Source of the DNA: Ganoderma boninense
Lineage: Eukaryota; Basidiomycota; Agaricomycetes; Polyporales; Polyporaceae
Reading direction: 5' to 3'
DNA: 64,000 nt
Assembly (NCBI GenBank): GCA_002900995.3
Contig: CM035306.1
Span: forward strand, 1,984,001 to 2,048,000
Part shown: positions 21,426-50,224 of the stretch, piece after piece
Layout of the letters: the number at the start of each line of letters is the position of its first letter
Position numbering within the stretch: position 1 is the first letter of the stretch
Made by a program: the position numbers and the translations under genes
The notes under the pieces: generated by a model
Seen by the model: the letters and a program-made list of their open reading frames with translations, nothing else
Database searches by the model: none
What the model was told of the DNA's origin: nothing

Positions 21426-21434
21426 GTTTGTCCC
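21426..21434 (+). repeat. Left target-site duplication (9 bp)
   Basis: GTTTGTCCC directly precedes the left terminus TAGACTCG. The identical 9-mer directly follows the right terminus. The bases next to it on the outer and inner sides differ between the copies, so the repeat is exactly 9 bp. Confidence 0.82.
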
Positions 21435-21597
21435 TAGACTCGAACCAGTCGATCGGGTCACGTCAGCGGAGAGTGAAAAGGGAGACGTGACCCTAACGAC
21501 TGGTGAAACTGGGCGGCCATTTGGCAGGGTGCCCCGATTTGGTACCCCGTGAGAGAACGTCCTTAGCAAAATCGCGAAACCCTCACCTGGAGGAATG
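21435..21597 (+). repeat. Left terminal inverted repeat
   Basis: Pairs with 28873-29030 in inverted orientation. The outer 12 bp (TAGACTCGAACC) match with one change. The inner block, about 95 bp beginning CTGGTGAAACTGGGCGGCC, matches almost throughout, including a perfect core around GGCAGGGTGCCCCGATTTGG and GTACCCCGTGAGAGAACGTC. The middle 55 bp differ in sequence but form a hairpin with stems ACCAGTCG/CGACTGGT and GGGTCACGTC/GACGTGACCC. Confidence 0.85.
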
Positions 21598-21670
21598 CGG
21601 GGCAGGAGTGTCTGTGCTCGACAATGGTTGTACAGTACCAACTTCCACCCGAGTACATAACATAACATGA

Positions 21671-24600
21671 TTACCAGTCTTCTAAATCTAATGACGGCTC
21701 TTCCTCCTGTGCAAACGCTGCGCGCGGCTCATAGTTGTCGGCGTCGTAGAACCTCCAGTAGTCCTCCTCGTCCTCTTCGGTCCACTGCACTCGCGGCACG
21801 GTGGTCGCGTTAAGTCCGTCTGAAACTTGACCAGCTTCACCTACGGAAGGGACCTGGCATGTTGTTAGTGATGTCAGGCAGGTACATTGAAAGGACTTAC
21901 TATTGGGAGCGCTACACCAGTGACTGTACCCGGCACGACCGGGTCCGGTGATTCCACGGCGGCCAGCGAGAGGGCGGCTGTGGTCTTGGGACTTGAGGGA
22001 GGTGTCATAAGGGGTGCCTCGCGACGTCGACGCTGCAGCTGTTGAAACATCTTGTTGTACTCGGAGAGCGGGTTGGGAAGTTGTTTGAGTCCCGAGGCGA
22101 CGACATTCGGAACCTCGGTGTTCTTCATGTCGCGGAGGACGCGCCCTGGCTCTACGCGAAAGATGCCGTTCTCCCGCATTGATTCTGTCAACGATGCCAA
22201 GTCACGTTCCAGGTCCGGCGAATGGTGCTTGGTGCCCAGCCGCTCACCGAGCGCCTCGTTGACCTGGCTCGCGAGCTGACGGAAAACGGAGATGCACGGA
22301 GAGACGGTTTGCAGCCACTCCCAAGATGCGTTGCTCCCCTGTGCCTTGTAGATAACCTGGCAGATGCCTATGTCAGAAGAATTATCAGTGCATGGGTTGA
22401 GAGAGACGCACCTTGACCCAAAAATTCATATGCTCCTGGAGGAGGTCAACGGGAACCCAGGAGTTCTCCTTCCCCGTGGGATTGACGAGCCAGTTCTTGA
22501 TCATGATGGCCCTGCAAACAAGAGCGACGTGAGTGAAACATTCATACAAGTAAGTTTCGAAAACTTACCGCAGTGGACCAGGCCAGACTCGCGTCAGATT
22601 GTGAATGAGGTGCAGGCACTCATGTGCATACTTGGCGCGCCCGCTGCCCCGGTACATGAGCGAAAGAATCTTAAGCGTCCGGATGATGCGCCCTGAATAA
22701 CCTCCCTTGATAGCATCTGTAAATTCACGGAGGACGAGCGCATCGCGGAAGAATAGAGAGGCATTTTCGAATACCATGTCGCCATGCTTGATGGGCTGCT
22801 CAAGGGGGTCGAAGGGTGGGGGCTTCGGGTTGGACTTGTGTGCAGCCGCATGCGCGCGTACTCGCTCTGCGACCTCCTCCTGTCGCGCAACACGGAGTTC
22901 AGCTACAGGGTTGGGGCTCGCATACGTCTTAACTACTAGGGCAGTGTGTTCTTTCAACTTGTCTAAAGTGACGTTGGCGGCATATTCTTCAAGAGATTGA
23001 GCACCCGAGACGAGCTCGAGGCAATGGAGAGCGGAGGCGGTGAGAGTCGCAAAGATGAGGTCGCGGCACGTTCGGTAGGGGGGGAGGGATGAAAGGACAA
23101 TGGGTTTACGATCTAAGAGCGTATTGAAGAAGCAGAGTGACGCGGGGTTACGATGGCCAGCGGTGGAGTCGCCAAAGTGGGTCTCCATGATGCCGTGTAC
23201 GACTGCCATCTGGTGGTGGAAGAAACCCGGTCCGAAGACGACTTGCCCATAGGACTGCTTGAGCTTCTCGTGCCCAGCACGGTTAGCAATGATGGTGCGA
23301 AGGCGAGCAATGGAGAGCTGGTCACCGAATACGGTGGCGACGATGTCAGCAAACTTAGGATCCCGCTTCTCGTACTCCAGCTCCGAGAATATGGTGTCTA
23401 ATACCTCTGCGTTTCCGGTCGTGCTTGACTCGTCTATATTCATCGCGGGAAGGGGGTATACGTCGGTGGTGTGAAGAGGAATCTTGTCATCGTCTCCTGG
23501 TAGGCAGGCATCAACGTCGGAGCGGAAGCGGGCGAAGAAGTCAGAGCCGTGGACGATCGTGCGGAGGAGTGCATGCTCAAGCGACTGATGGAAGATGGCG
23601 GCTTCTGCGGGCGTGTGGAGAATGTCTTGCATGGTAAGTGGTGTAGCGGCGTCGAACGAGGCGAGGACATCAGAGGTTTGCATGTCCTTCGCGTCGGCTT
23701 GGTGGAGAGGAAAGACTGTGGCGCAGGTGCCGTTTTCCTGGGTGTCCTTACGTCCGAGAATCTGTTCCGCGATCTTGAATACCATGTTGATGTTGTCGTA
23801 TACGTGTCCCAGTAGATGATGAGCAGCGCAGTGTCGAGTAGAGATGCGACAGGACTCTGAGAGACGTTTGAGCAAGCCAGCACCTCGAGCTAGGAGCATG
23901 AAGATGGGGTTAGGGACGTTAGGCGTGCGTTGGTCCATGTTGGGAGCGCGCGGCTCGATCGTGTCCTCGATCGCGTCCTCCTTCGAGTGCGCGCCACTTC
24001 CGTCACTGACCAGAGGCGGGTCTCTCTTGCTTCCTCTCGGTCTCTGGCTCTCTGGGCCCGAGTGTCCTCTGGATTCCTGGCTCGAACCCTCGTCGATCTC
24101 GTCGTCTTCTTCGTCGCTTGCGTCCTCTGTTTCTTCATCTGAGCTCTCTGGAACCCAGTCCGGATCCTCCTCGTCGGTGTCGTCTGAGATCTCGGCGATG
24201 GTCTTCCCAACCTTTCGTTCTTGTCGGCCGCTACCAGCAACAGTCGTGTAGCTACTGGAGTCTCCGATATTGGACATCACGGAGATCAGCTGGCGCGAGG
24301 CTCCGCTCACGTACATGTACAGGCCGACGACATGCTTCATCAGACTATTGTTTTGGCTACGTTCGCCGAGCAAGTTCGACATCGCGAAACCTATACGCTG
24401 CAGATATTCCAGGAGTCATTCGTATGTACATATGATGAGGTGAGTTTTCGCTTACTCGGTCCTTGCGCCCTTCGCGCTTTACCCTTCGACATTCTTCTGC
24501 GGCGCTGTGGGCGCTCCTCTCATTCTCTTTCAGTTGTCGAGTTGTGGTGCTGAAAGAGCGAAGTATGGCAGTCATCGATGGGCAAAGCAAGCGAAGACGT

Positions 24601-25436
24601 TGATGAATAGATGTGAAACTGAAGGAGAGCAGGAAATCGCGAGTGAATGGCTGGCGACGGGTGAGCAGCACCCCATCCCGCGTGACTGCGTTGGCCTCTT
24701 GATTGACGACTTTGCTCGTATATTGTATAGCCCATGCGTGCACGTCCGCGCAGCCAGTGCTCGAATTTCTGGACGACCAGAGATCGAGGATGCGTCGAAC
24801 TTGCGAGTCTCCGGTGCTGCGGTTTCGGTGGCTGAACAGACCGTCGAACCGCTGCTGTGCCATCCCCGAGGTAGGACTTGAAATCCATTCCACAAAGTCG
24901 CCCCAAGTAACGTTGTTCGCCTTCAGATTTTGCAACACATCTCGGTAGCACTTCACCTTTGTCTCAGCGGTCGACACTGCGTCAAGGGCTCGCGATTCGA
25001 TCTCGGCGCGAACTTCGTCGAGGAGGCGTTCCTCGCGAGCTTCTGCACGCTTCGCATTATGCGCAGTGATTGCAACTTGTCGTTTGGCCTCCCGTTTGCG
25101 CCGTCCCTTTTTGGTGGCGGGAGACGAGTATTTGACTCCGGGATCGCTGGAATCTGCCCCGATAAACACACCTTCGGAGCCCTTGTCGACGATACGGAGA
25201 GGTCGAGGTGTACGCGGTAATGGCAAATCCCTAGCAATATCAGGGACACCGGACGCCTCACCTCTATTGTCCTCCTCTCCTTCGGCCTCATCAGGTTCTT
25301 CCTCGTTGTTGTACGCGTCTCCGGGCGGTTGGGGCGGTCCTGGCGAGCTCGGTTCCGAGTCAATATTGGCTGGAGGAGATGAAGGAGGTAGCGGTGATAA
25401 GGCAAGTAGTGCGTCCAGGTCCAGAGGATCCGTCAT
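21671..25436 (-). CDS. DUF6589-domain protein, candidate transposase of the element
   Basis: Five exons (25436-24456, 24397-22569, 22511-22412, 22356-21901, 21853-21671) join in frame to give 1,182 residues with no internal stop. The N-terminal third is Pro/acidic and then basic (GRRKREAKRQ). The segment after the first intron (RIGFAMSNLLGERSQNNSLM, then GLYMYVSGASRQLI) is the usual DUF6589 entry region. An acidic insert of about 100 residues follows. The core has the recurrent motifs VYDNINMVF (Asp 528), VFGDQLSIARLR (Asp 686), FGPGFFHHQMAVVHGIMETHFG (His 721-722, Glu 732) and, before the C-terminal region, MVFENASLFFRDALVLREF. DUF6589 is a large, functionally undefined basidiomycete family. 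Its place between TIRs, and acidic residues in separate conserved motifs, suggest an RNase H-like DDE enzyme; this is inference. It is divergent from the RecQ gene. Confidence 0.85.
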
Positions 25437-25669
25437 ATTGACCAGAGTGTAGAGAGTATATAACAGAAGTTCAGGTAGCAGCTTTGGAATGTTAGGGAAT
25501 ATTGTATGCAGCGGCACGGACGGACTGCGTTTTCGCCTCGAGCGTCTACCGCAAGAGCGCCTGCGACAACCACCTCGTCTTTCCGCTTGCTAGGGTCTCG
25601 TCACTTATCATCGCGTCCTGCCCCCTCTCTCTCCACTCGAACACTCCGTCGAAACCACACTGTATCAAG
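25437..25669. promoter_or_regulatory. Bidirectional promoter of the transposon genes
   Basis: A 233-bp interval separates the divergent DUF6589 and RecQ start codons, so one region must serve both. A TATATAA at 25457-25463 is the only clear TATA-like sequence. It could serve RecQ with a long leader; it lies too close (20 bp) to the DUF6589 ATG to be its usual TATA box. Confidence 0.5.
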
Positions 25670-28600
25670 ATGCCTTTCAAAGGAACCTCATCTCGTCAGC
25701 GGTGGAAGGCCCCTCCATCTGCCTCCTATCATAAGCTCTCACCCGAGCAGCTCAAAGACCTATCCGACAAGATGAGCGAGGCATTCAAGTGGGATGGCCC
25801 CCCGAAGGACTTCCAACTTCGAGCTGTCCAGGCTCAGCTCGAGGGGACAGATATGATTGTCCAAGCCCCCACCGGGTCTGGGAAGACAGCGATCGCTGCA
25901 GGGCCTCATCTATGGCTGGGTAACGAAAAGAAGTTCACCCTCATGGTATGCCCATTACTGTCTTTGGAGGAAGAAATGGTAAGTTCGTATTTCGCCGAGC
26001 CCAATTCCCCGAAATGAGGTCGATCTCCTAGTGCGTGACCTTCGAAACCGACTTCGGTCTCAAAGCGATTGCCTTGAACAGCAAGAATGGTGCATGCTCC
26101 CCACTTAAAATCCGGGTACGCTCTATCAATCTTCTAGACTAGTGCATATTGTTCAAATTGTTTCCTCTCCTGCTGCGCTGTATGCAGGAGATTCTCGCTC
26201 TCAAGTACCAGATCATTCTCATCTCGCCAGAGATGCTGCAATCCCGTATGTTTACCAATCGAGTTCTTCGAAATGGCACATTCATGAGGAACTGCCTCTC
26301 CATGATTATCGATGAGGCCCATTGTATTGTACTGTGGGGCACGGACTTCCGCAAGAAGTATGGCACTCTAGGCAAGGTGCGCGCCTTCCTCCCGCGCGGA
26401 ACCCCTGTCGTCGCCCTCTCCGCAACGGTCACCCCTCGCGTAGTGCGGGCCATATGGGCTTCCCTCCATTTCGCGCATTCTCAGACACAGAGCCGTTACC
26501 TCAATGAAGGAAACGATCGCCCCAACGTCTCCATGGTCGTGCGCGCGTGCGAACATCCCATGAACACATACGCTGATCTGGCGTTCGCTATCCCCTCACG
26601 CCTCCGCTCCATACACGACATCCCCAAAACGTATCTTTACGTCAATCACATTCCAACAGGTGGTGAAATCATCGACTATCTCGATGCCTTGCTACAGTGC
26701 CACCCAGATCTCGTCGGCGACAACCACCAGCATATCCGCGCTGCGTTCCGCGGCATCATCCGTCCCTTCAACGCCACTCTATCCCATCGCTACCGCACTC
26801 TCGCCATGCATTACTTCCGTACAGGACACATACGTGTATTGGTGTGCACAGATGCTGCAGGCATGGTGCGTCTTTCTCATATCTTAGATTCGGCGACCAT
26901 CATGACTGTATACCTCGATACTGAAATGTTGCTATGTTCTAACCCAGGGATGCAACATCCCAGACATCGATCGAGTCATCGGCTGGAAGCTACCAACAAC
27001 GTTTTCGCAATGGATTCAGCGCGCCGGGCGCGCAGCCCGCGGGCGAGGATGCACTGGCCTCGCCGTCCTACTGGTTGAGAGGTCTGCATACAATGTAGAT
27101 CTCGTGAATGGCGAGAAGACGTCTGGAGGCAATCGCAAGCCTGCCAAAGGCAAGGCCGCAAAAACGGCGACCGAGACTGTAGCCAAGGAGACCGCGCGTG
27201 ATCGTGCAGAAGTACGCGCATATGCACTCGCCCACGGTTTAGCTCGCGGTGGGTCCACTCGACAAGACGCTGTTCCGACTGGTGACCCGCCTGTTCTCCG
27301 CGAAGACGCTGAGGACGAGGGGTTGTTGGCGTACGTTCAGAGCCCCACCTGTCGACGTAGGATCTGGGCTCGCGTCTTTGACAATCCACATCCCTTGGGT
27401 GAGTTCCTTTGCAACGTTGCCCATCAGCTAACCTCAGCTAAAGCTTCTTCACAGCTCCGACGGTTCCGTGCTGCGACATATGTGATCCCACACTGTTCAA
27501 CCGGACGAGACCGCCACCACTCCCACCCGAACGGCGTGCAAAAACTCTCAAGCGCGGCGAGCCCGACCCCGCCGCAGTCAAGAAGCTTCGTGAATGGCGC
27601 AAGCGGGTGTTCATTCGGGATCATTCATTACAACAGTACGACCACACGTCCATCCTTGACGACGACCTCATCACGACCCTCGCTTCTCACGGCACTCTAT
27701 CCGCAAACCAAGCCACTGATCTCATCCAAGACAAATGGCCCTTCTACGAACACCATGGTCTCGAACTGGGGGCTTACGTTGCTCAGCTTCCCATTGAACT
27801 CGTCGTCAAGTCACGCAAACGTGGTGCTTCGCCCGCTGACAACATGCCAGATGACTCCGCTCCGAAGCGTTCCAGAAGCGACCCAATGTTTCTGCAAACG
27901 CCGTGTTCACGGGAAGATCCAGATTCCTCGTTCGCACCTACCATCATCGCGCCCGCCCCGCAGATCCCACGGCAAGCAATGACTGAGAACTCACACCACT
28001 CTGTCGAAGGCCTTCCACATCATCGACTCGCCTTCTCGCCAGGCTCGCAGTCTGCACACTTCCCTCGCGCACCCACACGCGCCCCATCCTCTCAAGCTAG
28101 ATTGGTGCCGCAATACGGCCATGATCCCAGGATAGCTCCGCCGGTATACGCACACGCCCAGCACGATTCGAACCAACCTACCAGCCCTCGCCATCCGCCT
28201 CCCAGTTCCATCCCATCTATCTCCCACCAACTCGCTCCTCCTCCGCAGTTCTATCAATTGCCTCGGACGCCAGGCCCATCGAGGCTATCCACCCCCCACC
28301 CAACTCTGAATGTGAACCCGCTCCTTACGCCCGCAGCCCAACAGAGTTATCCGCGGCGCGCGACGGTCCCCTCACAGTTAGAGAACCCGTTTGTTTTTGA
28401 CGGGATCTCTCATCATACAGGTTCGATCCGCGCATATCCGCCACCCCCGCCCGTTCCGCAGCGCTTCCACTTGCCATCTCGGCCGCCATCGCAGACTACA
28501 ATGTACCTCTCCGCCGCCAGCATGCCCTCGCAATCGGTGCCCAACTATCCGCCCCCGCCGCCGCATCCCTCCGTCTCGGCAACATTCACCCCACCTGCTG

Positions 28601-28773
28601 CACCACATCAAGGATACCGCATTGGCATGTCACAGTCTGCCGGTGAGAGTTTCCCCGTCCACGCACAACAGCCGCCGACCATCTCTGTACCGGCGGGACA
28701 GTGGCCCCCGACGAGTCGAAGTCCTTCAATCCCGCGCTCGGACATGGGATCTCATTATTATGAATGGCAATGA
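25670..28773 (+). CDS. RecQ-family DNA helicase with proline-rich tail, carried by the element
   Basis: Exons 25670-25978, 26032-26115, 26188-26865, 26948-27398 and 27455-28773 join in frame to 946 residues. Superfamily-2 motifs are complete: FQLRAVQAQLEGTDMIVQ then Walker A APTGSGKT (about residues 66-73), DEAH box IIDEAHCI (173-176), SAT (209-211), the domain-2 segment RTGHIRVLVCTDAAGMGCNI, and motif VI QRAGRAARG (from 381). A Cys cluster, CCDIC (about 513-517), and an earlier CRRR resemble the RecQ zinc-binding site. From about residue 600 the protein is Pro/Ser/His-rich and probably disordered, unlike cellular RecQ enzymes, which carry RQC or HRDC domains. Expected activity is ATP-driven 3'-5' unwinding. 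All catalytic motifs are intact, which argues for recent function. The start context TCAAGATGCC is good; an upstream in-frame opening at 25502 uses a weaker leader. Confidence 0.88.
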
Positions 28774-28872
28774 CCACACGCACTATACCATAGATTCACT
28801 ATATATAATACATCTATCCCCCCGCCATAAATTATAGGGCCCACGGCAAGGGAGGGAGTTTGCATTCGCCGA

Positions 28873-29030
28873 GCCATTTCTCCCAGTGAGGATTTCACGA
28901 TTTTTGCTAAGGACGTTCTCTCACGGGGTACCAAATCGGGGCACCCTGCCAAAGGGCCGCCCAGTTCCACCAGCCGTTCCGGTGGTCAGAGAGGATCGCC
29001 ATCACCGGATCTCGGCTGGGTTCGAGCCTA
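28873..29030 (-). repeat. Right terminal inverted repeat
   Basis: Inverted copy of the left repeat. Read inward from the end it starts TAGGCTCGAACCCAGCCG, has a middle hairpin with stems CCAGCCG/CGGCTGG and CCGGTG/CACCGG, and then the conserved inner block ending near GAGAAATGG. The stem sequences differ from the left end, yet base pairing is kept. Confidence 0.85.
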
Positions 29031-29039
29031 GTTTGTCCC
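29031..29039 (+). repeat. Right target-site duplication (9 bp)
   Basis: GTTTGTCCC directly follows the right terminus CGAGCCTA. It is the exact copy of the left repeat at 21426-21434 and in the same orientation, as expected from a staggered cut at insertion. Confidence 0.82.
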
Positions 29040-33002: not shown

Positions 33003-35138
33003 ATGAATCTTCCCATCCACCCCGTTGACGAACATGTTGCCATATTCTGGGACTACGGTACGTTTCTTTGCGTTAACGCACCTGAACGTGGTGTTTGATG
33101 GTTCGTTTCCGCAGAGAACTGCGCGCCTCCAACGAGTACGCCTGGCTACGATGTCGTGAACAACATACGTCAGGTTGCGCACGAGTACGGTAGCGTAAAG
33201 CTATTCAAGGCATACCTTGAACTTTCCGAGCAATCTTCTTCCAAATCCATTGGCCTTCGCTCAGAGCTGCAGTCGTGCGGAGTCTCGTTGACCGACTGTC
33301 CACATAATGGGAGGAAGGATGTCGCCGACAAGATGATGATCGGTATGTCCGTCATGCACCCTCTGTTGTGTTACCATATCATACACCAGGGCACTCAAAT
33401 CATGGCCCACATAGTCGATATGCTCACCTACGCAATCGACAACCCCGCTCCAGCCACTATTGTTCTCATCTCCGGGGATCGGGATTTCGTCTACGCTGTA
33501 TCCGTACTACGCCTGCGGAAATACCGCGTAGTATTAGTTGCACCCCATTGCGCGCACGCCAGTCTCAAATCCCAAGCTTCAGCAGTGCTGAACTGGGAGA
33601 GCGACATCATGGGCAAGACCGCGCCGCGTCCTGGAACTTTGGAGAGAGAGTATAATGCCCCCGATGATGCGCTCCAACGCTCACCCAGACGCCCGTCTGC
33701 CGGAAGTCAACTTGGACCTCCGCCTAGTCCGAGGCACGGCCGCCGTCATTCGTTCAAGACTAATACACCCATAACCCCCATATCCCCTGAAGATGCTAAC
33801 AAAGTACCTAGCCTTCCTCTTTTCGAAGGAACACACAGGAGGAACCCCTCTATTGTTACAACCGACGAGAGGCTCTCGACCGACACCACTTTGCACAGTT
33901 ATATACCCCAGCTCCGCGAAGCTCTTGATGTGCTTCAAGCACAGCCACCCATACCCGACATCGTGGACTTCATGCAGGACTTGAAAGGTTCACGACTGCA
34001 GCCTCCCTCGCCGGCAACGGTACGTATTCTTCTTGTCGTTCGGCGACACTTGCACTCATTGTCATCCCCCAATCTTATCATCTCCATCCCACGATTGCTT
34101 GAACCGTCAAACACCTTTTTGCCGACGGTTCACCGCGATTCATCAGCTTTTACTAACTGACATCGTCAGCCCTGGGGCACCCGTTGCTACCTTGACAGAT
34201 GTCAATGTCACGGCTTCCACCTTGGTCAGTTCACTCTCTCGTCCTCTCCAATTCATCGCATTACTTACTGGGAACACATACTAACATTGATATTTTTGCA
34301 GGTACAGTCTTCAGCGGAGAACGTATACCCCGAATGTGTCATTGAAACGAGCAGCCTAAGCCCAAACCTCCCTCCCACTGGCACAGAGCCCTCCAGCGCG
34401 CCCCCGCATCGTCTCAATACCAATCTAGTCATCGCACCCGAGCCTATCCCTTTTCTGCACCGCAGATTTGAGACCCCGTTAATTGTGCGGCCCGCGACCG
34501 TCGAACCGTTGTCGCGCATTTTGAGCGCCCGCGTGGAACCTTCACCGGTCCCGGTCACGACCTCGCCCTCGTCCTCCTCGGAAGGCACGTTGCACACACC
34601 CGTACCTATCCCATCCGAGACTATTGACATTACGCCGCCCACGTCTGCGCTCGACGTCGAGGAATCCTCTTGTTCTGATGTCGCCTCGCCCCCTCCGCCA
34701 CTGAGCGACCAAGCGTTTGCACCCGCGCGCCTGCTGTCTCCCACCGGAGTTCCGCCTGGATCAGGGTCGACCACCGACGGTCACGATGTGGCGCCGCCCA
34801 CGGGCGACCCTGCACTGGCAGCCGCTGTGCACCTTGCCGATGCGAGCATGTCGATCCCTCGCTTCTTCCATCCTCTCGTAAAGGCCCTTGAGGAGTCTCG
34901 CCTCCGGGGGCTGCTCAAGCCCCTTCGCTCATGGGTTGGCCTACGGATCCCCGCTGGTACGTACGCGGACGCGAAGGTGTCCTCGTTCAAGCAGTACACG
35001 GCTGCGGCCGAGAAGGCAGGCCTCGTGGAGCTCGGGGGCCTGCAGGCCAAGGCATGGATCGCGCTGCGCCCCGAGTGGCATGACAAGATCCCCATTGAGC
35101 TGCAAGTGCCGCCTTCGGCCTTGCCCTCGGTATCCTGA
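33003..35138 (+). CDS. NYN-domain (PIN-like) putative ribonuclease, copy 1
   Basis: Exon 1 (33003-33057) ends inside the motif IFWDYENC, which is completed by exon 2 from 33115. The NYN domain continues with AHEYGSVKLFKAYLE, LQSCGVSLTDCPHNGRKDVADKMMI, joined by splicing to VDMLTYAIDNPAPATIVLISGDRDFVYAV. The acidic residues of WDYEN, KDVADK and GDRDF match the metal-binding set of NYN/MARF1-type RNases. A long Pro/Ser/Thr-rich linker follows. The C-terminal 90 residues (FHPLVKALEESRLRGLLKPL, then SSFKQYTAAAEKAGLVELGG, then AWIALRPEW) look like a LOTUS/OST-HTH winged-helix RNA-binding domain. This layout suggests an RNA-directed endonuclease, though target RNA and role are unknown. A diverged paralogue lies at 48470-50224 on the other strand. 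Confidence 0.82.
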
Positions 35139-36976: not shown

Positions 36977-39843
36977 ATGCTCGCAGAACTCTCCAAGGCC
37001 TGCAAGCGTCTCGTCGGGGCGTCCGACGACGACGTTCCCGTCATCTCGCCACAGGACTGGGCTGGGAACATCGTTCGCGACCCCGTTCAGCAGGTCCGTT
37101 CGACGCTCTATGGCCCTCCCTGTTGCCGCACTTCTGACCTCCGTCGCAGGCAATCGCATACGTGACTAGCCTCTTCCCCATATTCAGCTGGATCACCCGC
37201 TACAGTGAGTCTGACGTCCCACTTAATTTGACTCCCCTCCCCTTGACCGCGCGCTCTCTGCTAGACCTTGGATGGTTCAGCGGCGATATCATAGCGGGGA
37301 TGACCGTCGGCATCGTGCTTGTCCCTCAGAGCATGTCATACGCGCAGGTCAGTTGATCCCCTCTGGCCCCCCTTGGCACCGTCGGCCCTAAACTAGTCCC
37401 CGTAGATCGCCACTCTTCCCGCTGAATATGGCCTGTACTCTTCTTTCGTTGGCGTCTTGGTCTACTGCGTAAGTTCACGGCATACCCCACACTGGGGTTT
37501 TTTGACATCGCCGCGCTGCTTTTGACCCGCGCTAACTCTACCACAGTTCTTCGCGACTTCGAAGGATGTCTCCATCGGTCCCGTGGCTGTCATGTCCCTC
37601 ACCGTCTCCCAGATCATCAAATACGTCAACGAGGCCCATCCCGATACATGGTCCGGTCCGCAGATCGCGACCACCGTTGCCTTTATTTGCGGTTTCATCG
37701 TCCTCGGCATTGGCCTTCTCCACCTCGGCTGGCTCGTCGAGTTCATCCCCGCGCCAGCGGTCAGCGGCTTTATGACGGGATCCGCGCTTAGCATCGTGTC
37801 GGGGCAGCTTCCTGGCCTTTTGGGGATCAGCGGCTTTGAGTGAGTCGTCTCCACCACGCGCTACCCTCATGCAATGAACCTTGACTGTCCTGCCCCCGCA
37901 GCACCCGAGCGGCGACTTACAAGGTGTTCATCAATACGCTCAAACATCTGCCCAAGACCAAGCTTGACGCTGCGTTCGGCATTACCGGTTTGGTATTCCT
38001 GTACATCATCCGTTGGGCATGCGTCCGGCTATCCCATCGCTACCCTTCTCGAGGTTAGCTCCGTGGATTCATAAGGATAATGGACTGTCGCTGATGCGGA
38101 TCTATTTTCACAGCTCGGTGGTTCTTCTTCTTCTCCGTCTTCCGTAACGCCTTCGTAATCGTCGTCCTCACAATTGCGTCATGGCTGTATTGCCGCAGGC
38201 ATGGTGGCAACGGTAAGTATCCCATCAAAATCCTCCAGAACGTTCCCCGTGGCTTCAAGCACATCGGCCAACCCCCGATCGACCCCGAGCTCGTCAAAGT
38301 TCTAGCTCCCCAGCTGCCGGTCGCAACCATCATCCTATTCCTGGAGCACATCGCAATTTCCAAGTGTACGTACTTCCAATCTGGAGATTGCTCGGTTCAG
38401 CAGTGCTGATACCCTTGCCATGAAGCGTTTGGCCGAGTGAATGGTTACAAAATTAACCCGAACCAGGAGCTTATCGCCATCGGTGTGACCAACACCATCG
38501 GCACGATCTTCGGTGCCTACCCCGCCACAGGGTCCTTCTCGCGTTCGGCCCTGCAGTCCAAGTCTGGCGCGCGTTCTCCCGCATCCGGTCTCTTCAGCGC
38601 CGTCGTCGTCATCGTCGCCCTGTACGGCCTCACGCCCGCCTTCTTCTGGATCCCCACCGCGGCGCTCTCCGCCGTCATCATTCACGCCGTTGCGGACCTC
38701 GTCGCGTCGCCGGAGCAGGTCTACTCCTTCTGGCGCGTCTCGCCCGTCGAGTTCGTCATTTGGTTCGCATCCGTGCTTGTGACCGTGTTCGCGACCATCG
38801 AGGACGGCATCTACACGTCGATCGCGGCCTCGCTCGCCCTGCTCCTCGTGCGCGTCGCGCGCCCGCGGGGCCACTTCCTGGGTCGCGTCACGCTGCACAA
38901 CACGAAGGAGTCGAGCTCGCGCGACGTGTACATCCCGATGCAGCCGAATAAGTTCCTCATGAACCCACAGGTGAAGGTGTACCCGCCGTCGCCTGGAGTC
39001 GTGGTGTACCGCTTTGAGGAGAGCTTCCTGTACCCGAACTCGTCCCTCGTGAACGACGCGATCGTGGACTACGTCAAGGAGAGCACAAGGCGCGGACAGG
39101 ACATGACTGGGATCAAGGCAGGAGACAGGCCGTGGAACGACCCGGGCAAGAACTCGGACATGGAGGCAAAGGAGAATGCAGCAAAACCGATCCTCCATGC
39201 CGTCGTCCTGGACTTTTCCGCAGTGTAAGTGTCCTTCCTGCGTCGGAATGTCCGCGCCTTCCCCGCATCGCGGGCTAACTCGACTCGGCAGTTCGCATAT
39301 AGACACCACCGGGGTGCAGGGCCTCATCGATACACGTGCCGAAGTCGAGAGATGGGCCGACTGTCCTATCGAGGTAGGTTCTTCGCGGGACGCCTCGGCT
39401 TGTAACATGTTCCTGACGTGACGTCCACAGTTCCATTTCGCGACCATCCTATCTCCCTGGATCCGCCGTGCACTGATCGCCGGGGGCTTCGGTATCCGAG
39501 GGAGCGCCTTGTCCACCCACTTCCACGAAGAGATCGCACCCGTCACGCGGTACCACGACCAGTATATCGCGGACCCCGAGCACTCCGAGCCCATCGACGT
39601 GGTGAGCAGGACGACAGACCCAGAAGCCGCCGTGAGCGTGGTGCCGATCAGTGCGCTCAGTGCGCGGTCCTCAAGCGAGCAGACGGTGCAGTCGCTGCCT
39701 AGCGAGTCTGCACTGATGATGTTGCCAGACACGCCGTTCTTCCACCTAGACTTGGCATCGGCTGTCAAGGCGGCCGAGAAGGGTTTGCCTCGCGCTGTGT
39801 CCATCATCGACGCTGGTTCGGTTAAGGGGCCCGGAGACGACTA
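36977..39843 (+). CDS. SulP/SLC26 sulfate permease with STAS domain, copy 1
   Basis: A multi-exon gene for a sulfate permease of the Sul1/Sul2 class. After a soluble N-terminus (VPVISPQDWAGNIV) comes the family signature SLFPIFSWITRY, then DIIAGMTVGIVLVPQSMSYAQ. Further membrane segments include VGPVAVMSLTVS-like GPVAVMSLTVSQIIKYV, TTVAFICGFIVLGIGLLHLG, FIPAPAVSGFMTGSALSI, the NQELIAIGVTNTIGTIFGAYP segment with GSFSRSAL, and FWIPTAALSAVIIHAVADLV. The C-terminal cytosolic STAS domain is split by an intron: VVLDFSAV joined to SHIDTTGVQGLIDTR. The protein probably imports sulfate with protons across the plasma membrane. The start at 36977 aligns with that of copy 2; an upstream in-frame Met at 36899 precedes the TATA box and is rejected. 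Tail-to-tail with copy 2, with TACO1 between them. Confidence 0.92.
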
Positions 39844-41529: not shown

Positions 41530-44322
41530 CTACCCCGAGGCCTCGGTCTTGGCATTGTCCGGCGACTTGATAAAGCTCGAGCGCTCCGACCTGTCAGCTC
41601 CCAGACCTGCCTCCGCGGCGCGAACAGCCGCGCTAAGGTCGAAGTGGAAGAAGGGAGTGTCCTCAGACACGATCGGCGACCCCTCCGCCTGCAGGCTCTC
41701 CTCGATGGCCTCGATGTCGGCAGCCTTTGAGGACTCATTGATCTGCGACCTGCCCCCGCGGTAAGGAACTACAGGCGCGATCTCGGTGGGTATGCCGGAC
41801 GAGGCAGAGCCGATGCCGAAACCACCCGCGATGAGCCCGCGGCGGATCCAGGGAGAGAGGACGGTGGCAAAGTGGAACTGCGACATTTTTCGTTAGTCTG
41901 CGACTCCTTCCGCGAATATGAAACTGGAACTCACTTCGACGTTCTTGTTTGCCCAGCGCTCGACCTCGGTTCTCGTGTCAATCAAAGACTGCACGCCGGT
42001 CGTATCGATGTGCGACCTATCCCCGAAACAACTGATCAGCGACCGTATCTTGACATGTGACACGCAAATCAGAGTTAAACTCACACTCCAGAGAAGTCGA
42101 GGACGATCGCATGGAGGGCCGGCTTAGCGAGATTCTCCGCGTTCTCGTCCTGACCAGGCTTCGGACCAGGGTCGTTCCACGGCCGGTCGCTCATCCGGAT
42201 TTGGCTCATGTCGATCCCCCTGCGCGTGTGCTTCTTGACGTAATCAACGAGGGCGTCGTTGAGCAGAGACGTGTTAGGGTAGAGGACGCTTTCCTCGAAG
42301 CGGTACACGATGACGCCGGGCGACGGGGGGACGACCTTAATGGGTGACAGGACACCGGAGCGTTCCTTGAGGGGAACGTACACCTCGCGAGTTTCGGACG
42401 GGTTCCGTTGCTCTGAGAGGGTGACCTTGCCGAGGAAGTAACCACGGGGGTGGGCAAGGCGGACGAGCAGCAATGCGAGGGACGCGCAGATGGAGGTGTA
42501 GATGCCGTTCTCGATTGAGGAGAAAACGGTAACCAGCACAGCGGCGGCCCAGATGAAGAACTCGAGCGGGGAGACGCGCCAGAAAGAGAACACCTGCTTT
42601 GGACTGGCGACCAAGTCCGCGACAGCATGGATGATGACCGCCGAGAGGGCAGCGTTCGGGATCCAGAAGAAAGCAGGAGTCAACCCGTACAGAGCGACGA
42701 TCACGACGACCGCAGTGAGGATACCTGCGGCAGGAGTACGGACACCGGACTTGGACTTGAGTGCGGAACGCGAGAACGAACCGGTAGCCGGGTAAGCACC
42801 GAACACCGTGCCGACAGTGTTTGTCACGCCGATGGCGATCAGTTCCTGGTTGGGGTTAATCTTGTATCCGTTCAACCGACCAAAGGCTGGAATGTCAAAT
42901 CAGTACGAATCATCGTGGGAGCGACAGGAGTTGACTTACACTTGGAGATGGCGATGTGTTCAAGGAGCAAAATGATAGTCGCCACCGGTATCTCGCCTGC
43001 AATCGCCGACACGAGGTCCTTGTCGATGACTGGCGGGCCTACGTGCTGGAAACCCCGAGGGACGGTCTGCAAAATCCTGATGGGATATTTTCCTGACTTG
43101 CTCTTGTGGTGCCGGCAGTACAGCCAGGATGCGATCGTCAGGATGACGATCACAAATGCGTTCCTGAAAACGGAGATGAAGAAGAACAAGCGCTCTGAGA
43201 GACAACGTGTCAGAAGATAAATATGCAAGACGATTGAGGTCTACGTACTCCTGCGAGGGTAGCGTGCTCCAAGGTAGTCGCACCCGAACCGAATGAGGTA
43301 CAACGAGACAAGACCCGTGATGCCAAACGCTGCGTCCAGTTTCGTGGCAGGCAAGAATTTAAAGCAGTTGATGATAACTTTGTAGGTCGAGTCACGAGTG
43401 CTGACGACAGATGTGAACATCGCTTCCGTGTAGAGAAAGCGTAGAACATACTTGAATCCAGTCTCCCCGAGAAGTCCAGGGACTTGCCCAGCGACAATGT
43501 TGATTGCGGACCCGGTCATGAAACCACTGACGGCGGGAGAGGGGATGAACTCAACAAGCCAGCCTAGGCGCAAAATACCGATGCCCAACACGATGAAGCC
43601 GCATATGAAGGCCACCGTAGTGGCGATCTGTGGGCCTGACCAGACGCCCGGATGATGCTCGTTGACCGAGGCAATTATGTGGGAGACCGTGAGGGACATT
43701 ACGGCAACGGGACCGATTGACACATCTTTTGAGGTGGCGAACAACTAAAAACCAAAAAGGGTGTGTTTAACGCCGTACTCTGGGCGAGCTAACCATTGCA
43801 GCAAGGAGGACTTACGCAATAAATCAGCACGCCCACGAAGGCGGAGTAGAGACCGTATTGTGTGGGAAGGGTTGCAATCTGCATAGAGTGCCGGTGAATC
43901 ACTGAGCCTCCCATAGACCTAGCGGTAGAAAGCAAACGTACCTGGGCGTATGACATGCTCTGGGGAACGACGACAATACCAACGGTGAGGCCGGCGATGA
44001 CGTCGCCGTAAAGCCATCCAAAGTCTGGACACCCTATTAGGACCAACGTTCACCCATGAGAGACTGATAGGAGACTCACTGTATCGGGTGATCCAACCGA
44101 AAATGGGGAATAGCGACTGCACATATCGCAGAGCCTAGACGCGCAATCAAGGTCAGACGACGCGCAGCAAAGTAAACGACATGGACAAACATCACGGGCT
44201 GGGTTTTGAGTGAGGTTGCGTGTCCAGTCCTTGACAGTGACGACGGGCACAGGGTGCTCGGATTGGCCGATGATGCGCTTTCCGAAGCTCTTGGCCTTCG
44301 CGAACGCCGACGGGGAGGTCAT
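41530..44322 (-). CDS. SulP/SLC26 sulfate permease with STAS domain, copy 2
   Basis: Paralogue of copy 1 on the opposite strand. It has the same order: VPVVTVKDWTRNL, SLFPIFGWITRY, DVIAGLTVGIVVVPQSMSYAQ, GPVAVMSLTVSHIIASVNEH, FIPSPAVSGFMTGSAINIV, NGYKINPNQELIAIGVTN, GSFSRSALKSKSG, FWIPNAALSAVIIHAVADLV, and a STAS domain (IVLDFSGV joined to SHIDTTGVQSLIDTR). The membrane core is nearly the same as copy 1, while the N-terminus, the loop before STAS and the C-terminal tail differ, as expected for an old duplication kept by selection. The C-terminus holds acidic stretches (SKAADIEAIEESLQAEGSP) and an FFHFDLSAAVRAAE motif also present in copy 1 as FFHLDLASAVKAAE. The start at 44320-44322 matches copy 1 by position. 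Confidence 0.92.
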
Positions 44323-48469: not shown

Positions 48470-50224
48470 TTACACCGCTGCTACTGCCGCCTTCCGCCGG
48501 TACGCAGGGTGCAGCGCGATGTAGTTGTGCCCGTCCGCGCTCTCCCTAGTCGTGGTAACGATGCCGCGCTCTGCTGCGAGCGCCGTGTACTCCTTGAGCC
48601 GCGCGACGCCCGCGCGCTCGTAAATGAGGCTCAGCCGCGTGACCTCCTGCGAGAGCAACTGACCCAGCAGCGAGGACTCGAGCTGCACGACCCCCTCCAC
48701 GAGCTGTCGCTTGAGCACCTTCACGAGCGGCTTGAACTCAGAGGGCAGCTGTGGGGGCGGCTTCTTCACGGCACGCGAGTAGGTCTGCCACCCGGCGCCG
48801 TCGTCGCCCTCAGAGCCGCCTTCATCTGTGCCGAACGATGCAATAGGCCTTGGAATGGGTTTGAACGAGGAGGCATTGACGTTGAGTCCGGGAGGACTAG
48901 ACGATAACGTAGTGCGGATTGCCTTTGTTTCGAAGCCGAGGGCGTCGCTAGTAACTGGCGATGGTTGATTCTGCGCGAACGGGCCCCAGCGGGTGTACTC
49001 GTGTTTTGCCAAGGTGGCCTGCGGTGATAGTTGGTTGCAGTACACACCGATACACAATGTTAGGCTTACCCATGAAGGCGGAGGAGGCGCGGTTGACTTG
49101 TCGCTTGAAGATTTCGATTTCAATGAGGCTGAACTCTTTCGCTCGGAAAGGCTCAGGCTATGGCTCGTGCTGCTGGGAGATGCCTAAGTAGCCATCATTT
49201 GGGCTTAGTGTCATTGAAGATCTGTCTACCAGAATTTGAAGCAGTGACTCACTGTCGTCGGTTCTTGACAATCCGCGTTTCCGCCCGCGCTTTCAAATTT
49301 GCCATCTGGCTCCTGGAGGTGCTCCAAGACCGAGATGTCTCCCGCGCTGGAGGTGCACGTGCCTAACACTCTCCGAGCAGGTGTGCCGCTCTCAACACAG
49401 TCATCCGGCGAACCCAAAGTGTCACCGTCCACAGACGGTTCAAAGGCGGCCTCACTGTGAGCAGGTGATGTGGATGGCGATGTGGATGCAGAACTCCAGT
49501 GCCTGTCAAAGACAAGCTGACCTGCCTTGAGAGCGTTCTGGGGACGGCCATTGCCTGAGGAGTTGACCTGAAAGGTATGCCATTGTTGGACTGAGGGGGG
49601 TATCTCAGGCAAGAAATCATCAGGCCAGTGATAAACGGCGCTGGCTTGAGCTTTGAGGCCGCCGTGCGCAGCACGTGGGGCCAATAGCACAATGCGGTAT
49701 TGGCGGAGAGAGAGGATGGACACGGCGTAGATGAAGTCGCGGTCCCCGGAGATAAGCATAATGGTTGTCGGTGCGGGGTTGTCTATAGCATGCGCCATCA
49801 TATCCACTAGCGTCAAGGATGCACATTAGTGGTGGGCAGACGTACAGATCCACAAACAAGCTTACCCATGATCATCTTGTCTGCCACATCTTTTCTACCG
49901 TTGTGGGGACAGTCGATGAGCGATACACCGCAAGATTGGAGCTCCGAGCGCAGGGCCATGGATTTTACGGACAGCTGCTCAGGGCATTCGAGGTAAGCCT
50001 TGAAGGTCTTCACGCTGCCGTACTGGTGCGCCAGTCGGCGAACCTTGTTCACAATCGTGTAGGGAGGCTCTAGCGCGGGTAAAGCGCAATTCTCTATGCA
50101 CCATTGTCAGTACCATTGCTATAGACAACTCTGGTCAGTGACACAGACCGTAGTCCCAAAAGATGGCAACGCTTTCGGGCATGACCATCGGCTTAATGGC
50201 ACAGGTAAGGTCGGGAAGTGCCAT
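48470..50224 (-). CDS. NYN-domain (PIN-like) putative ribonuclease, copy 2
   Basis: Paralogue of the gene at 33003 on the opposite strand. From ATG 50224 (MALPDLTCAIKPMVMPESVA) the first exon ends in IFWDYE, with the intron at the same codon phase as in copy 1. Then come NKVRRLAHQYGSVKTFKAYLE, LQSCGVSLIDCPHNGRKDVADKMIM joined to VDMMAHAIDNPAPTTIMLISGDRDFIYAV. The acidic residues of the NYN site are all kept. A Ser/Pro-rich linker is followed by a C-terminal segment (FKPLVKVLKRQLVEG, then RLKEYTALAAERGIV, then YIALHPAYR) that again looks like a LOTUS/OST-HTH winged helix. The nuclease core is highly similar between copies, but linker and C-terminal domain have diverged. A TATA-like run lies just upstream of the start. 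Confidence 0.82.

What the first reader, a model, noticed from the sequence alone, without database searches (positions are those of the whole stretch)
21426..29039. A complete 7.6-kb transposon that pairs a DUF6589 gene with a RecQ helicase
Seen directly: an exact 9-bp direct repeat (GTTTGTCCC) abuts matching ends (TAGACTCGAACC and, inverted, TAGGCTCGAACC), the ends continue into about 160-bp inverted repeats, and only two genes lie inside, both with uninterrupted frames after splicing (1,182 and 946 residues). Family knowledge: DUF6589 and RecQ-like proteins are both abundant in Agaricomycete genomes and neither is normally annotated as a transposon part. Inference: the two form one mobile unit, with DUF6589 as the likely transposase and the helicase as accessory replication or repair factor. 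I know of no description of this combination but could not search for one.
Basis: partly seen in the sequence, partly recalled or inferred. Interest (0 to 1): 0.9.

Follow-up and report, generated by a model that had tools for sequence, protein, structure and literature searches.

The report
Mushroom transposon pairing transposase and RecQ
This is a complete jumping gene from a fungal genome that carries two genes, a previously uncharacterised protein that looks like its transposase and a DNA-unwinding RecQ-like helicase, and related copies found elsewhere in the same genome nearly always carry the same two genes together.

Summary
Window 21435-29030 is a 7,596-bp element with a 9-bp duplication and inverted ends, holding a DUF6589 gene (1,182 aa) and a RecQ-like gene (946 aa). 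In the window's own genome 15 of 16 DUF6589 loci found carry a RecQ-like gene beside them; 11 of the 15 have recognisable ends. Distances of the two proteins correlate at r = 0.968 over 14 loci. A sibling element on contig C38 has an empty site with one 9-mer, 111 of 111 bases. Short gene-less copies share the ends and 9-bp duplications. AlphaFold models of two distant DUF6589 clades match Hermes best and then other DDE enzymes; D, D, E and H line up. I conclude that DUF6589 is the transposase of a lineage I could not match to a named superfamily, with RecQ as co-inherited partner. The helicase's job is inferred. RecQ in a transposon has precedent (KolobokH), but duplication, ends and gene layout differ. 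My searches found no description; Repbase was not available.

The parts
21426..21434 (.). left 9-bp target-site duplication GTTTGTCCC
21435..21597 (+). left terminal repeat region (outer TAGACTCGAACC; inner 82-104 bp block matched inverted at the right end)
   Evidence: about the first 141-143 bp are shared with short copies
21444..21504 (.). sub-terminal palindrome inside the left end (two 21-nt arms, 90% complementary, 19-nt spacer)
   Evidence: I2; predicted DNA hairpin, z = -5.5 against mono-nucleotide shuffles
21671..25436 (-). DUF6589 gene, putative DDE transposase, 1,182 aa; exons 25436-24456, 24397-22569, 22511-22412, 22356-21901, 21853-21671
   Evidence: homologues; fold of homologue P0003; conserved D, D, E, H
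25437..25669 (.). short region between the two divergent start codons, presumably holding both promoters (inferred)
   Evidence: gene models
25670..28773 (+). RecQ-like helicase gene, 946 aa; exons 25670-25978, 26032-26115, 26188-26865, 26948-27398, 27455-28773
   Evidence: closest solved chains RECQL5; Walker A, DEAH, SAT and motif VI present
28875..29030 (-). right terminal repeat region (outer TAGGCTCGAACC, inverted)
29031..29039 (.). right 9-bp target-site duplication GTTTGTCCC

Best explanation
Window 21435-29030 is one copy of a family of two-gene DNA transposons. Shown by sequence: the unit has inverted ends beginning YAGNCTC, makes 9-bp target duplications, is inherited as a DUF6589 + RecQ-like pair, and shares its ends with short gene-less copies, which must have been moved in trans (inference). 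Supported by prediction: DUF6589 is an RNase H-fold DDE transposase with a large helical insertion, of the broad hAT/P/MuDR/Kolobok/Dada type, which cuts the element out and joins it to a 9-bp staggered target. Inferred: the RecQ-like helicase acts alongside the transposase, most likely in DNA processing around the break. It could drive strand-displacement synthesis that refills the donor site, which would also raise copy number, or unwind the structured ends. I give about 40% to donor-gap repair, 25% to end or strand unwinding during the reaction, the rest to other roles.
Confidence: 0.87

Rival explanations
1. RecQ is only cargo: a host gene captured by a one-gene DUF6589 transposon, as TET/JBP genes were captured by several fungal transposons.
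For: Accessory genes in fungal DNA transposons are known (PMC12730594, passages). No role for the helicase was tested.
Against: 15 of 16 DUF6589 loci carry it and the exception looks like a fragment; distances of the two proteins correlate at 0.968; low dN/dS in both genes (rough); present in both gene orders (3 divergent, 12 convergent); on the same contig in other fungi.
Confidence: 0.15
2. The element is a divergent branch of a named superfamily (MuDR/MULE, hAT, P or Kolobok) rather than a lineage of superfamily rank.
For: Fold matches Hermes (hAT) and P. [quoted passage not shown] MuDR makes 9-bp duplications (recalled).
Against: No Pfam transposase family matched 16 diverse members; 9-bp duplications differ from hAT (usually 8 bp), P (8 bp, recalled) and Kolobok (TTAA); first residue of the motif is G, or A/E/M in some own-genome clades, not C or D.
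Confidence: 0.35
3. It moves by a helicase-driven replicative route (copy-out or peeling of a strand), with RecQ unwinding the element and DUF6589 only nicking and joining.
For: A RecQ-like helicase gene accompanies 15 of 16 DUF6589 loci; one end of several elements forms strong predicted hairpins.
Against: Exact 9-bp duplications and inverted ends are typical of double-strand cut-and-paste (recalled); 101-112-bp copies also moved; hairpins not seen in the CAGGCTCC clade (z no lower than -2.0).
Confidence: 0.12
4. Not mobile: a chance or segmental arrangement of inverted repeats around two neighbouring genes.
For: The window's own insertion has no empty allele in this assembly.
Against: Empty sites of two related copies; different duplications at independent copies; near-identical copies at different sites.
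Confidence: 0.01

Closest known systems
KolobokH (Kolobok superfamily, fungi)
   Same: A fungal DDE transposon that encodes a RecQ helicase (PMC9587614, passages).
   Different: There RecQ is encoded downstream of the transposase domain; Kolobok duplicates TTAA and ends RR..YY. Here RecQ is a separate gene on the other strand, duplications are 9 bp and the ends are YAGNCTC. The same passage mentions one red-algal Kolobok with RecQ on the complementary strand.
hAT (Hermes)
   Same: Best structural match to both models; RNase H core with a large helical insertion; conserved D, D, E.
   Different: hAT duplications are usually 8 bp, with 5-7-bp variants; no hAT Pfam match; no RecQ partner known to me.
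P element
   Same: Second structural match. Repair of P-induced gaps depends on a host RecQ helicase, Blm/Mus309 (recalled), an attractive parallel.
   Different: 8-bp duplications (recalled); helicase supplied by the host, not the element (recalled).
AcademH
   Same: Academ lineage encoding a helicase, in animals and fungi (title, in the reference lists shown).
   Different: Paper not held, so not compared.
TET/JBP-carrying KDZ, Plavaka, hAT7 and IS3EU transposons of fungi
   Same: Fungal DNA transposons with an extra enzyme gene.
   Different: Different accessory gene; duplications of 8 (Zisupton, Dileera), 2-3, 7 and 6 bp.
Subtelomeric RecQ genes of fungi
   Same: Repeated RecQ-like genes in fungi (passages).
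   Different: Described as near telomeres; DUF6589 is not mentioned in the passages seen. I did not compare sequences.

Membership tests
DUF6589 (PF20231) | profile match over the curated cut-off of 27 bits | tested here: met
   322.5 bits, E = 4.3e-96
RecQ-like SF2 helicases | Walker A, DExH, SAT and motif VI; best solved relatives in the RecQ family | tested here: met
   APTGSGKT, DEAH, SAT, QRAGRAARGR; RECQL5 chains best
RecQ (TIGR00614) | score over the curated cut-off (219.8 bits) | tested here: not met
   129.2 bits for homologue P0121, 68.7 for window exon 3 alone; best family in that library but divergent, hence RecQ-like
DDE cut-and-paste transposons | inverted ends and fixed-length target duplication at independent insertions | tested here: met
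   20 of 23 exact 9 bp; empty site
DDE cut-and-paste transposons | RNase H fold with D on the first strand, D after a later strand, E on a late helix | tested here: met
   in predicted models only: D207/D365/E643 and D228/D406/E657 at those places; catalysis untested
hAT | 8-bp target duplication (5-7 bp variants) | tested here: not met
   9 bp; definition
hAT | hAT transposase or dimerisation profile | tested here: inconclusive
   no hAT Pfam family among matches of 16 members at E <= 10
P element | 8-bp target duplication (recalled) | tested here: not met
   9 bp
MuDR/MULE | 9-bp target duplication (recalled) | tested here: met
MuDR/MULE | MULE transposase profile | tested here: inconclusive
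   no such match in Pfam for 16 members
Kolobok / KolobokH | TTAA 4-bp target duplication, ends RR..YY | tested here: not met
   definition; here 9 bp, ends YAGNCTC
Kolobok / KolobokH | RecQ downstream of the transposase domain | tested here: not met
   definition; here separate genes on opposite strands
[quoted passage not shown]
   H invariant in 76/76 and 48/48 rows with G three before it: a GxxH variant; definition
AcademH | Academ transposase and its duplication length | not tested
   paper not held

The most novel reading that the evidence does not exclude
DUF6589 + RecQ is an undescribed superfamily of eukaryotic DNA transposons, widespread in Agaricomycetes, in which an element-encoded RecQ-like helicase is an obligate working partner of the DDE transposase. 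Every DUF6589 gene of these fungi would then be a live or dead transposase, and much of the RecQ-like expansion annotated in mushroom genomes would be transposon machinery.
Probability: 0.45. Interest if true: 0.85.

Novelty: new variant of a known kind. Interest (0 to 1): 0.76.

Why it matters
It gives a likely function to a Pfam family of unknown function with many members across mushroom-forming fungi, and may explain part of the 'P-loop NTPase' or RecQ-like genes annotated on the same contigs. It offers a natural two-component system for asking what a helicase adds to DDE transposition, a question usually hidden because host RecQ proteins do the work (recalled: Blm in P-element gap repair). 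It also warns that gene-family 'expansions' of RecQ or DUF6589 in these genomes may be transposon copy number.

Tried and rejected
Non-mobile inverted repeat: rejected by the empty sites. KolobokH membership: rejected on duplication, ends and gene layout. Helitron: not pursued, since inverted ends and fixed duplications do not fit one (recalled). Viral relatives of the fold: no match at E <= 0.001. Sequence match of DUF6589 to solved structures: none at E <= 1. MULE or other superfamilies absent from the fold lists: says nothing, as those lists only re-rank Foldseek's matches. A preference for G at position 1 and C at 9 of the duplication (18 of 34, both strands of 17 sites) was seen but not tested against background. 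Sub-terminal hairpins as a general trait: strong in the left ends of the window, L009x and L013 and the right end of L022, weaker in L011x and L015, not seen in the CAGGCTCC clade (mono-nucleotide shuffles only), so not used.

Rows dropped before counts. Of 20 short loci fetched (L028-L047), 12 gave paired ends with a 9-bp repeat of at most one mismatch; L030, L035, L037, L040, L041, L045, L046 and L047 did not. L043 and L044 carry the same duplication inverted and share one flank, so they are probably one insertion copied. L021 was left out of the distance test because its stretch also holds part of the neighbouring element. Whole-genome counts are lower bounds, as only best candidates are scored (35 and 20). 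Of the 120 DUF6589 rows listed only the 78 with an NCBI name were used, and of the 120 RecQ rows the 119 with a contig length; both lists are truncated (269 and 691 hits), so a missing partner is not evidence of absence. The species names agree by eye in the 45 matched pairs. Alignment A3 was not used for a model because its first sequence lacks the E region.

Not in print: full-text searches 'DUF6589' (0 papers); the library holds only open-licence PMC papers, and of the listed ones I read passages of eight, none in full. Repbase was not available.
Full report
What was checked. The window lies at G000:C3:1984001-2048000 of a 55.6-Mb, 74-contig genome. One correction: the inverted repeat is a mosaic, with well-matched outer ~19 bp, ~40 poorly matched bases and an inner 82-104-bp block at 91-94%.

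Copies in the genome. The left end gave 32 matches and the right end 30. Of 20 short loci fetched, 12 have paired ends and a 9-bp duplication (11 exact, one with a mismatch), at 101 to 1,339 bp; the other eight do not. Their matches to the window's element are confined to about the outer 145 bp on the left and 155 bp on the right (rows of 60 bp or more), so they lack both genes. Two pairs are 99.4% and 99.1% identical at different sites with different duplications, so movement was recent (inference). The copies of 101-112 bp consist of little more than the two outer ends fused, so about 64 bp of one end and 49 of the other may suffice in cis (inference).

The gene pair. Searching the genome with the DUF6589 profile gave 33 matches, which I merge into 16 loci. 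The helicase exon gave 17 places. Fifteen loci hold both genes, 3 divergent like the window and 12 convergent; one locus (L025) has what looks like a DUF6589 fragment alone, and two (L026, L027) a helicase fragment alone. Eleven of the fifteen gave ends; four did not (L016, L021, L023, L024). Of all 23 copies with ends, 20 have an exact 9-bp duplication, two have one mismatch and one has 8 bp; shifted flanks gave 0 of 690. The boundaries of L009x, L011x, L013, L015 and L022 were found with the duplication as a criterion, and L015 and L022 have the least typical ends, so those five are weaker support; the L009x boundary is independently borne out by its empty site.

Empty sites. I tested five sites by joining flanks. 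The C38 element (C38:6529-13931, 7,403 bp, both genes, same divergent layout as the window) matches C12:1199428-1199538 over 111 of 111 bases, with one TAAGAGTCT where the filled site has two. The flanks continue at 97.8% over 1,561 columns on one side and 89.6% over 809 on the other, so C38 may be an alternative haplotype or a diverged duplicate. A 112-bp copy has a diverged empty site at 82% over 94 bases. The window's own site and those of two short copies had none in this assembly.

Co-inheritance. Distances between loci for the two proteins correlate at r = 0.968 (14 loci, 91 pairs, 0 of 10,000 permutations); the trees agree on the main clades but place L018 and L023 differently. Exon pieces give dN/dS of 0.03-0.18 in the five of six comparisons that returned a value; dS exceeds 1 in four of these five, so the ratios are rough. 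In other species, 45 of 78 named DUF6589 hits sit on a contig of exactly the length of one carrying a helicase hit, including contigs of 9,855 bp (Trametes cingulata) and 19,374 bp (Phlebia brevispora, gene names g2309 and g2307).

How it probably works. Shown: a mobile two-gene unit with fixed ends and duplications. Predicted: DUF6589 is a DDE transposase. Inferred: cut-and-paste with a 9-bp stagger, and a helicase that helps process the break or the ends. The P-element precedent, where a host RecQ helicase repairs the gap, is recalled. I give 0.87 to the two-gene transposon with DUF6589 as transposase and much less to any one helicase role.

What is known. RecQ helicases have been reported in KolobokH (passages of PMC9587614), so 'transposon plus RecQ' is not new. 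The 9-bp duplication, YAGNCTC ends and separate helicase gene differ, and I found no match of DUF6589 to a named transposase family. The full-text search for DUF6589 returned nothing, and the other searches named in Tried and rejected turned up no such element, but the library is open-licence PMC only and Repbase was out of reach. I rate it a new variant of a known kind, possibly of superfamily rank.

Noticed in passing
window 37263-39496 and 41812-44026: Inverted pair of sulfate permease genes (PF00916), 68.6% identical over 1.7 kb.
   Followed up: partly
window 33156-33577 and 49644-50052: Second inverted similarity (67.6% over 426 bp), the first part inside an ORF with a NYN domain (PF01936).
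   Followed up: partly
L011x (C2:2256621-2271117): 14.5-kb, apparently decayed copy of the same family with an extra internal stretch bearing a 776-bp, 99% inverted repeat, and N in place of the first catalytic D.
   Followed up: partly
L020 (C10): 7,420-bp convergent element with inverted repeats of about 565 bp at 99.6% identity, longer and more alike than in the window copy.
   Followed up: no
L021/L022 (C7, about 640.1-650.8 kb): Two DUF6589 + RecQ pairs lie within about 11 kb in the same orientation, possibly a tandem duplication.
   Followed up: no
C16:46367-46467: A 101-bp copy sits beside a dispersed repeat whose roughly 45-bp edge matched at 22 further places; a preferred landing place or chance.
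   Followed up: no
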